64,000 nucleotides of DNA from Planctomycetia bacterium (GTDB lineage Bacteria; Planctomycetota; Planctomycetia; Pirellulales; JACPPG01). Of this stretch, positions 4,493 to 61,342 are shown piece after piece. The notes beneath the pieces are model-generated. The model made no database searches and was not told the origin of the DNA. It was given only the letters and a program-made list of their open reading frames with translations. Positions within the stretch are counted from its first letter, which is position 1. Every line of letters begins with the position of its first letter. A program made the translations under genes and the position numbers. The DNA lies in assembly GCA_016191115.1 (NCBI GenBank), contig JACPPG010000052.1:162810-226809 (forward strand). Reading direction: 5' to 3'.

Positions 4493-4631
4493 CAGGGCCG
4501 TTCACAGATTCAAGCTTGCCGGCGGCGCACCGGCGGGAAAGTGGGACAGGCACCGAGACGCAACGTTGGTCTGAAAGGGCTTGCGCTGTTTATGCTCGGA
4601 GCCAGTCCCATTTTCCCGCCTCGCCATTTTG
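4493..4631 (+). mobile_element. MITE family A, copy A1, right end lost
   Basis: It starts with CAGGGCCGTTCACAG like the other A copies and follows the consensus to CCATTTTG, where it diverges. The last 25 bp, including the right terminal repeat, are missing. A family B element lies 16 bp further right. No flanking duplication can be scored. Confidence 0.85.
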
Positions 4632-4647
4632 CACGCTGTGCCGTGGC

Positions 4648-4769
4648 CAGGAGAACTGCAAAGTCCTGGGACAGGGGGTCAGGCACATTTTTCGGCCGAA
4701 GGTCCTTCGGAAGATGAGAACCGCATGTGCCGAAAAATGAGCCAGACCCCGGACTTTGCAGTTCTCCTG
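4648..4769. mobile_element. MITE-like element, family B
   Basis: A 122-bp element with perfect 19-bp terminal inverted repeats (CAGGAGAACTGCAAAGTCC at 4648-4666 and its complement at 4751-4769). It is flanked by TGCCGTGGC at 4639-4647 and 4771-4779, a 9-bp direct repeat, or 10 bp with one mismatch. Inner arms GGGGTCAGGCAC and GAGCCAGACCCC form a second imperfect stem. It has no coding capacity. Together with A1 it fills most of the gap between the LOG and STAS genes, in which I see no gene. Confidence 0.8.
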
Positions 4770-9448: not shown

Positions 9449-9606
9449 CAGGGCCGTTCACAGATTCAAGCTCGAACGGCGGCGCACCGGCGGGAAAGTG
9501 GGACAGGCACCGAGACGCAACGCTGGTCTGAAAGGACTTGCGCTGTTTATGCTCGGAGCCAGTCCCATTTTCCCGCCTCGCCATTTTGAAAAACAGAATG
9601 GCCCTG
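9449..9606 (+). mobile_element. MITE family A, copy A2
   Basis: A complete copy (158 bp) from CAGGGCCGTTC to GAATGGCCCTG, in the spacer between the convergent hypothetical and DUF4129 genes. The flanks (GAACCTTCTC and CTGTGTTCCC) do not form a target duplication, so this copy is old or recombined. Nothing else is recognisable in the 9282-9648 spacer. Confidence 0.9.
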
Positions 9607-14216: not shown

Positions 14217-14355
14217 CAGGGCCGTTCACAGATTTAAGCTGGCCGGCGGCGCACCGGCGGGAAAGTGGGACAGGCACCGAGACGCAACGTTGGTCTGAAA
14301 GGACTTGCGCTGTTTATGCTCGGAGCCAGTCCCATTTTCCCGCCTCGCCATTTTG
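14217..14355 (+). mobile_element. MITE family A, copy A3, hybrid with family B fragment
   Basis: It follows the A consensus from CAGGGCCGTTCACAG to CCATTTTG and then switches to about 50 bp (14357-14406) that match one arm of family B in inverted orientation (GTGCCTGACCCCC). Copies A1 and A3 break at the same internal position. The rest of the 14116-14494 spacer shows nothing else. Confidence 0.85.
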
Positions 14356-14494
14356 ATTCTGAAGGACCCTCGGCCGAAAAATGTGCCTGACCCCCTCTCC
14401 CAGGACAAGGCAAGCGGCCCGAGCTGCCCGACCGGATCGGCCGAGCCGCGGCTGCCACGGCCAAATGGCCTACCGATCACTTCGCCCGGCCGGC

Positions 14495-19834: not shown

Positions 19835-19991
19835 CAGGGCCGTTCACAGATTCAAGCTGGACGGCGGGGCACCGGCGGGAAAGTGGGACAGGCACCGAGA
19901 CGCAACGTTGGTCTGAAAGGGCTTGCGCTGCTTATGCTCGGAGCCAGTCCCATTTTCCCGCCTCGCCATTTTGAAAAACAGAACGGCCCTG
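19835..19991 (+). mobile_element. MITE family A, copy A4, with 10-bp target duplication
   Basis: A complete 157-bp copy from CAGGGCCGTTC to GAACGGCCCTG. It is flanked by TGACTCACCG at 19825-19834 and 19992-20001, a perfect 10-bp duplication, or 11 bp if the terminal G is counted. It ends 66 bp before the TPR gene start. This copy directly proves insertion by transposition. The remaining spacer (19718-20057) holds nothing else I recognise. Confidence 0.95.
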
Positions 19992-23924: not shown

Positions 23925-24081
23925 CAGGGCCGTTCACAGATTCAAGCTTGCCGGCGGCGCACCGGCGGGAAAGTGGGACAGGCACCGAGACGCAGTGTTG
24001 GTATGAAAGGGCTTGCGCTGTTTGTGCTCGGAGCCAGTCCCATTTTCCCGCCTCGCCATTTTGAAAAACAGAATGGCCCTG
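23925..24081 (+). mobile_element. MITE family A, copy A5
   Basis: A complete 157-bp copy from CAGGGCCGTTC to GAATGGCCCTG. The flanks (GTTCGGACGC and GGGCGGAGTG) show no clear target duplication. It sits between the divergent rsfS and PVC-type cytochrome genes, 57 bp from the ATG at 24139. The rest of the 23724-24138 gap has no recognisable gene. Confidence 0.92.
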
Positions 24082-47870: not shown

Positions 47871-48004
47871 TTGCCGGCGGCGCACCGGCGGGAAAGTGGG
47901 ACAGGCACCGAGACGCAACGTTGGTCTGAAAGGCCTTGCGCTGTTTATGCTCGGAGCCAGTCCCATTTTCCCGCCTCGCCATTTTGAAAAACAGAATGGC
48001 CCTG
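47866..48004 (+). mobile_element. MITE family A, copy A6, left end lost, in SDR pseudogene
   Basis: It matches the consensus from CAAGCTTGCCGGCGG to GAATGGCCCTG but lacks the first 18 bp, including the left terminal repeat. Its left boundary is the break in the SDR gene. The missing end and the missing gene half suggest one deletion that started inside the element. It ends 163 bp before the M48 peptidase start. Confidence 0.9.
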
Positions 48005-55221: not shown

Positions 55222-55378
55222 CAGGGTCATTCTGTTTTTCAAAATGGCGAGGCGGGAAAATGGGACTGGCTCCGAGCATAAACGGCGCAAGTCCTTTCAG
55301 ACCAACGTTGCGTCTCGGTGCCTGTCCCACTTTCCCGCCGGTGCGCCGCCGGCAAGCTTAAATCTGTGAACGGCCCTG
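55222..55378 (-). mobile_element. MITE family A, copy A7, with 10-bp target duplication
   Basis: A complete 157-bp copy in reverse orientation, from CAGGGTCATTCTG to GAACGGCCCTG read on the plus strand. It is flanked by GTGGCGAGCG at 55212-55221 and 55379-55388, a perfect 10-bp duplication. It sits between the divergent NYN and mfd genes, 65 bp upstream of the mfd start. The rest of the 55125-55443 gap has no other visible element. Confidence 0.95.
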
Positions 55379-61185: not shown

Positions 61186-61342
61186 CAGGGCCATTCTGTT
61201 TTTCAAAATGGCGAGGCGGGAAAATGGGACTGGCTCCGAACATAAACAGCGCAAGCCCTTTCAGACCAACGTTTCGTCTCGGTGCCTGTCCCACTTTCCC
61301 GCCGGTGCGTCGCCGGCAAGCTTGAATCTGTGAACGGCCCTG
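61186..61342 (-). mobile_element. MITE family A, copy A8, with 11-bp target duplication
   Basis: A complete 157-bp copy in reverse orientation (CAGGGCCATTCTG to GAACGGCCCTG on the plus strand). It is flanked by CTCTTGCGACC at 61175-61185 and 61343-61353, a perfect 11-bp duplication. It ends 95 bp before the citrate synthase start. The rest of the 61013-61437 gap shows nothing else I recognise. Confidence 0.95.

What the first reader, a model, noticed from the sequence alone, without database searches (positions are those of the whole stretch)
4493..4769. Families A and B share an interrupted stem with two A-A mismatches around GGC
In A the arms are GGGACAGGCACCGAG and CTCGGAGCCAGTCCC; in B they are GGGGTCAGGCAC and GAGCCAGACCCC. 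In both, folding leaves two A opposite A positions exactly three pairs apart (A-GGC-A). Otherwise the arm sequences differ. Conservation of mismatches in unrelated arms suggests recognition of a folded strand by a protein, as in REP elements mobilised by single-strand (RAYT/Y1-type) transposases. That would be at odds with long target duplications, which makes the system hard to classify.
Basis: partly seen in the sequence, partly recalled or inferred. Interest (0 to 1): 0.7.

Follow-up and report, generated by a model that had tools for sequence, protein, structure and literature searches.

The report
Mismatched hairpins riding in mini-transposons
The two repeat families are small DNA transposons that each carry a folded-DNA signal with two unpaired A-A positions, and the same signal recurs on its own across many planctomycete genomes, where the unpaired positions are kept even though the rest of the hairpin has changed, as if a protein reads the folded strand.

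Summary
Families A and B both fold into stems with two A.A mismatches around GGC/GCC (4548.4604 and 4552.4600; 4681.4744 and 4685.4740). The arms are not unrelated: both contain CAGGCAC/GAGCCAG. Genome-wide, 406 of 419 such hairpins keep all four A's, but most are near-identical copies. The real test is elsewhere. In a relative (G050), 47 of 54 hairpins with unrelated loops keep A.A at both positions, while the inner stem varies with compensation. Similar hairpins occur across Planctomycetia, as large (about 65 nt) and compact (27-38 nt) forms, often as inverted doublets.

A and B are not themselves mobilised like REPs. They are 157- and 124-bp MITEs with unrelated terminal repeats and 10-bp target duplications. 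Each carries one hairpin, and other copies of the hairpin stand alone. The hairpins resemble terminal repeats of RAYT-like 'TIRYT' genes (GGGGWCAGG) and co-occur with such genes. In another family, one RAYT gene is flanked on both sides by the hairpin. No hairpin-flanked RAYT was found in this assembly.

Verdict: a new variant of REP/TIR repeats, captured by MITEs. The cognate enzyme is inferred, not shown.

The parts
4493..4631 (+). MITE family A copy, 3' end truncated (complete copies are 157 bp)
   Evidence: positions 1-139 recur at 99-100% identity; complete copies end in GAATGGCCCTG with 9-11 bp direct repeats
4493..4515 (+). left terminal inverted repeat of A, CAGGGCCGTTCACAGATTCAAGC
4543..4557 (+). 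hairpin A left arm GGGACAGGCACCGAG (A at 4548 and 4552 unpaired)
4595..4609 (+). hairpin A right arm CTCGGAGCCAGTCCC (A at 4600 and 4604 unpaired)
4648..4769 (+). MITE family B copy (122 bp here; usual length 124)
4648..4666 (+). B terminal inverted repeat, CAGGAGAACTGCAAAGTCC
4751..4769 (-). B terminal inverted repeat, GGACTTTGCAGTTCTCCTG
4675..4686 (+). hairpin B left arm GGGGTCAGGCAC (A at 4681 and 4685 unpaired)
4739..4750 (+). hairpin B right arm GAGCCAGACCCC (A at 4740 and 4744 unpaired)
9500..9566 (+). family A hairpin, further copy
14267..14333 (+). family A hairpin, further copy, followed by a partial B element at 14383-14393
19885..19951 (+). family A hairpin in a complete MITE, target duplication TGACTCACCG
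23975..24041 (+). family A hairpin, further copy
47898..47964 (+). family A hairpin, further copy, left end of the MITE altered
55262..55328 (-). family A hairpin in a complete MITE, target duplication CGCTCGCCAC
61226..61292 (-). family A hairpin in a complete MITE, target duplication GGTCGCAAGAG

Best explanation
The A.A stem is a REP-like hairpin of the RAYT/TIRYT world of Planctomycetia. It has a GGGG[A/T]CAGGCAC left arm and a G-A-GCC-A-G[T/A]CCCC right arm, and folds as a stem with two A.A mismatches around GGC/GCC on one strand and T.T on the other. The mismatches give the fold a polarity, so a Y1 (HuH) transposase of the TIRYT family, or another single-strand binder, can tell the strands apart, as TnpAREP does with the E. 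coli REP bulge. In this genome two different MITEs each captured one such hairpin. They were then multiplied to roughly 400 (A) and an estimated 150 (B) copies by a DDE-type transposase that makes 10-bp target duplications. The hairpin was carried along as cargo and is no longer the moving unit. Shown: the hairpin and its mismatches, their conservation across unrelated loops, compensatory change in the inner stem, the MITE ends and target duplications, and stand-alone hairpins. Inferred: capture by the MITEs, recognition of the folded strand by a TIRYT/RAYT, and the DDE enzyme.
For: Mismatch conservation: own genome 406/419; G050 47/54 with loops no more alike than shuffled letters (0.49 against 0.47). 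Compensation: the inner stem is paired in 84% of cells in G050, against 61% after re-dealing partners (best of 2000 shuffles 70%). G073 shows several swapped inner stems (CATTTTCG/CGAAAATG, CCGTTTCG/CGAAACGG, CCGATCCG/CGGATCGG, CCGGCCCG/CGGGCCGG) with A.A fixed. Constraint on arms: in 800 kb of G050, 13 hairpins match all 22 arm positions and 6 more have 1-3 changes; the rest is chance background. MITE mobilisation: 9-11 bp exact target duplications in 42 of 72 strand-counted complete A records (about 21 of 36 elements), none of that length in about 1400 control placements; 12 of 20 B elements have 8-11 bp. Independence of hairpin and MITE: stand-alone hairpins in the own genome (L014, L035, L036, L046) and throughout the class without A/B ends. 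A 64-bp relative of A has no hairpin. RAYT/TIRYT link: 56 of 67 TIRYT loci have detectable flanking inverted repeats, mostly of the GGGG[A/T]CAGG type. G050 shares GAAACGGGGACAGG between its TIRYT ends and its hairpins. Of genomes with at least 4 large hairpins, 17 of 18 have a TIRYT, against 105 of 280 others, p = 1.5e-6. L312 lies between two 58-bp direct repeats that contain the hairpin; L313, L384, L387 and L391 (same clade, support 97/80) have it 38-117 bp downstream.
Against: In this genome no Y1 gene is flanked by the A.A hairpin. The great majority of TIRYT loci read here have ordinary inverted repeats instead, and only one has the hairpin on both sides. L384, L387 and L391 look like one orthologous locus beside a tRNA gene, so they are not independent, and their hairpin could be a terminator. 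The co-occurrence test is not corrected for phylogeny or genome size, and it used only the large-hairpin counts. No enzyme for the MITEs was found. The hairpin-free relative of A has no clear target duplication. A perfectly paired sister class exists, so mismatches are not required by every related hairpin.
Confidence: 0.7

Rival explanations
1. The hairpins are mainly bidirectional intrinsic terminators or mRNA-end structures. Many read AAAAGGGGAC...GTCCCCTTTT, and selection keeps a terminator, not a transposase site.
For: Stem followed by T-run on both strands in L312, L313 and G050 copies; position between RAYT and tRNA genes in L313, L384, L387, L391. Largely intergenic location.
Against: Terminators do not need the invariant GACAGGCAC/GAGCCAG letters or two fixed A.A mismatches, which weaken the stem. 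Families A and B are not enriched between convergent genes (A: 9 convergent, 21 divergent, 23 tandem, near background). B has no T-run at its stem base.
Confidence: 0.12
2. The hairpin belongs to the MITEs themselves (a stem needed for their DDE transposition), and the stand-alone copies are remnants.
For: Every complete A and B copy has the hairpin in the same place. A similar MITE end in G024 (L134, L136, L138) is followed by another palindrome.
Against: Hairpins are abundant in many genomes that lack the A ends. A and B ends are unrelated. A hairpin-free relative of A exists. Doublets in G050 and G073 lack MITE ends.
Confidence: 0.08
3. The mismatches in A and B reflect only common descent of a few recently amplified copies, with no functional meaning.
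For: Family A copies are about 99% identical, so their 406/419 agreement says little.
Against: G050, G073, G282 and the compact families keep A.A with unrelated or compensating surroundings.
Confidence: 0.06

Closest known systems
TIRYT/TIRtron terminal repeats (Di Nocera et al. 2013, PMC3733652; subclass 2.1 of Quentin et al. 2018, PMC6006769)
   Same: GGGGWSAS motif (GGGGACAG, GGGGTCAG), dispersed copies, dimers, association with RAYT-like Y1 genes; Planctomycetes are among the PVC bacteria in which that survey found tagged palindromic repeats, and it notes many tyrosine-transposase genes with flanking repeats in R. baltica.
   Different: TIRYT repeats flank the gene as near-perfect inverted repeats. 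Here left and right arms differ and fold into a short hairpin with two A.A mismatches. No such mismatch family is mentioned in the passages I read.
E. coli-type REP and its TnpAREP (PMC8266576)
   Same: Imperfect palindrome with conserved mismatches in mid-stem; inverted doublets of two hairpin types; intergenic. Correcting the mismatches severely affects TnpAREP activity in E. coli.
   Different: E. coli uses an AA-GC bulge and a GTAG foot. Here there are two separate A.A pairs around GGC/GCC and no GTAG foot in the copies examined.
Bacterial MITEs (non-autonomous DDE elements)
   Same: Terminal inverted repeats, about 10-bp target duplications, no ORF, high copy number.
   Different: Each carries a REP-like hairpin as cargo; the parent insertion sequence was not found.

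Membership tests
MITE (families A and B) | terminal inverted repeats | tested here: met
   A: CAGGGCCRTTC.../...GAATGGCCCTG; B: 19-bp CAGGAGAACTGCAAAGTCC inverted
MITE (families A and B) | target-site duplication | tested here: met
   mode 10 bp for both families; none in about 1400 control placements
MITE (families A and B) | parent autonomous element with the same ends | tested here: inconclusive
   only a C-terminal ISAs1-family transposase fragment (L131) in the assembly; no element with these ends found
REP of the GTAG super-family | GTAG tag at the foot of the stem | tested here: not met
   feet read GAAAAGGGG, GAAACGGGG, GGGAAAGTGGG
REP (general) | imperfect palindrome, many intergenic copies, inverted doublets | tested here: met
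   G050, G073, G161; own-genome A 10 of 63 classifiable copies genic against about 87% of random windows
REPtron (RAYT flanked by its REP) | RAYT gene flanked by the same hairpin | tested here: met
   only outside this genome: L312 both sides; L313, L384, L387, L391 downstream. Own genome: not met
TIRYT terminal repeat | GGGGWSAS motif | tested here: met
   GGGGACAG and GGGGTCAG in stand-alone and B hairpins; the A hairpin reads TGGGACAG, one base off (motif from PMC3733652)
TnpAREP substrate | bound and cut as folded single strand, mismatch-dependent | not testable with these tools
   needs biochemistry

The most novel reading that the evidence does not exclude
Planctomycetia carry an undescribed REP super-family whose identifying mark is a pair of A.A mismatches around GGC/GCC in place of a GTAG tag. 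It is read strand-specifically by a clade of TIRYT transposases, and joins the TIR-type and REP-type RAYTs in one system. DDE-type MITEs have captured it at least twice and spread it.
Probability: 0.45. Interest if true: 0.65.

Novelty: new variant of a known kind. Interest (0 to 1): 0.52.

Why it matters
E. coli TnpAREP needs mismatches in mid-stem to use its REP. Finding a different, rigidly kept mismatch pair in a distant phylum would make the rule 'mismatch as strand label' testable in an independent lineage. The family also offers a bridge between TIRYTs, so far linked to plain inverted repeats, and hairpin REPs. The nesting shows how a single-strand element can gain hundreds of copies through a double-strand transposon.

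Tried and rejected
Searched the own genome for a RAYT flanked by the motif: three Y1 genes, none flanked by it. Tested whether the ISAs1 family is the parent of the MITE ends: only a fragment (L131); L132 is a false match. Looked for A-type ends around a transposase in relatives: G024 has three similar left ends (L134, L136, L138) followed by a different palindrome, no transposase and no matching right end. Literature search with the arm letters gave only unrelated hits. Considered a pure identity-by-descent explanation and rejected it because of G050 and G073. Gene context was estimated with a crude GC3-based ORF caller; the G050 part crashed and was redone.

Full report
Observation. At 4493-4769 two repeat families lie side by side. 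Family A has arms GGGACAGGCACCGAG (4543-4557) and CTCGGAGCCAGTCCC (4595-4609). Family B has GGGGTCAGGCAC (4675-4686) and GAGCCAGACCCC (4739-4750). In both, A faces A at two positions three pairs apart. Single-strand DNA folding leaves exactly these positions open, with z-scores of -4.9/-6.5 (A) and -10.5/-11.6 (B) on the two strands.

Copy number and within-family state. The genome (6.03 Mb, a draft planctomycete assembly) has 867 matches to GGGACNGGCNCCGAG. With all four mismatch positions left free there are 419 hairpins; 406 keep A.A at both. In 0.86 Mb read in full, all 65 GGGAC-type hairpins have A.A at the outer position and 63 at the inner one; of 22 GGGTC-type hairpins, 20 and 21. Because copies are up to 99-100% identical, this alone is weak evidence.

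The stronger test comes from relatives. In G050, 54 hairpins have loops no more alike than shuffled letters (mean identity 0.49 against 0.47). 47 of them keep A.A/A.A. Their inner stem is paired in 84% of cells, against a shuffled mean of 61% and a best of 70% in 2000 shuffles. In 800 kb of G050 the hairpins fall into a sharp class (13 with no change at 22 arm positions, 6 with 1-3 changes) above chance background. So arms and mismatches are held while loops drift. G073 has inverted doublets with several different inner stems and A.A throughout, apart from single variants. Over a hand-assembled set of 113 sequences the inner position is A.A in 110 and the outer in 95; the outer is paired in 6. 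G020 and G198 show G.A or T-A at the outer position. A separate, fully paired class occurs in G282, G285 and G287. The pattern search fixed the neighbouring bases, so this speaks to the four positions and the inner stem, not to the whole arm.

Distribution. Large hairpins occur in 51 of 298 sampled Planctomycetia genomes (some single hits are chance, as the reversed-pattern control shows). Compact hairpins of REP size (27-38 nt) reach 218 copies in G161.

What A and B are. Both are MITEs. A is 157 bp with CAGGGCCRTTC ends; B is about 124 bp with 19-bp CAGGAGAACTGCAAAGTCC ends. Complete A copies show exact target duplications of 9-11 bp (mode 10) in 42 of 72 strand-counted records; about 1400 control placements gave none of that length. 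12 of 20 B copies show 8-11 bp. Of the classifiable A copies, 10 of 63 fall in predicted genes against about 87% of random windows, and there is no excess between convergent genes. Stand-alone hairpins occur in the same genome (L014:5180, L035, L036:18918, L046:2020). A 64-bp relative of A lacks the hairpin. I therefore infer that each MITE captured a pre-existing hairpin. This removes the conflict with long target duplications.

Which enzyme reads the hairpin. RAYT-like TIRYT genes in this group have terminal repeats at about -55 bp and just downstream, detectable in 56 of 67 loci and mostly of the form AAAAGGGG[A/T]CAGG... This is the GGGGWSAS motif of Di Nocera et al. (PMC3733652), assigned to subclass 2.1 by Quentin et al. 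(PMC6006769). The hairpin arms fit that motif. In G050 the TIRYT ends and the hairpins share GAAACGGGGACAGG. The only TIRYT of this genome (L010) has AAACGGGACAGGTCTAATT ends. Of 18 genomes with at least four large hairpins, 17 have a TIRYT, against 105 of 280 others (Fisher p = 1.5e-6, not phylogeny-corrected).

In G211 the RAYT of L312 lies between two 58-bp direct repeats, each containing GGGGGACAGGCACCTGGCGGAGCCAGTCCCCC. L313 (G211), L384 (G223), L387 (G191) and L391 (G217) have a compact hairpin 38-117 bp downstream. All five form one clade (97/80) and match Pfam Y1_Tnp where tested (L312, L313). Caution: L384, L387 and L391 look like one orthologous locus beside a tRNA gene, and several of this clade keep a GGGGACATTCTACTTT repeat upstream, so only L312 is a clean REPtron.

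Mechanism. For E. coli, published work shows that two conserved mismatches in mid-stem are needed by TnpAREP (PMC8266576). By analogy, the A.A pairs (T.T on the other strand) would label the strand. That step is inferred. In the present genome the hairpin appears to be passive cargo of the MITEs, because its copies move with MITE ends and target duplications.

A and B next to each other. Of 19 B elements, 6 lie 9-11 bp from a complete A. In at least three (L043, L049:7832, L051:4482) the same roughly 10-bp word (one or two bases differ in L051) stands before, between and after the pair. One family has thus inserted at the duplication of the other, which suggests a shared or end-attracted transposase. 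The pair at 4493-4769 is probably such a case, with A truncated.

Limits. No binding data; no parent insertion sequence; a draft genome whose contigs end inside A copies; one clean REPtron.

Noticed in passing
L043:16893-17017, L049:7832-7957, L051:4482-4606; also L040, L050:17911, L029:17116: MITE B often sits 9-11 bp from a complete MITE A; in at least three cases the same roughly 10-bp word (one or two bases differ in L051) is present before, between and after the two elements, as if one inserted at the other's target duplication.
   Followed up: partly
window 17383 and about 11 sites in 0.86 Mb: Another palindrome family, GGGCG-A-GGC-T-CCCGCCGAGCCG...CGGCTCGGCGGG-A-GCC-T-CGCCC, fully paired at the equivalent positions.
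   Followed up: no
L134, L136, L138 (G024), position 1501 onwards: A repeat with a left end like MITE A (CAGGGCCATTCACTGTTTCAAGC) followed by a different palindrome GGGGTGCCATGC...GCATGGCACCC; no matching right end found nearby.
   Followed up: partly
L014:14476-14543: 64-bp element with A-type ends on both sides and no hairpin.
   Followed up: partly
L170 (G287), L332 (G282), L333 (G285): Fully paired sister hairpins with GGGWCAGGC arms on both sides, several with the loop GCCGGAACGGCCCGAAGGGTGC.
   Followed up: no
contig ends C4, C15, C26, C65 and others of G000: Several contigs begin inside MITE A copies, so the assembly breaks at this repeat and genes flanked by it may be missing.
   Followed up: no
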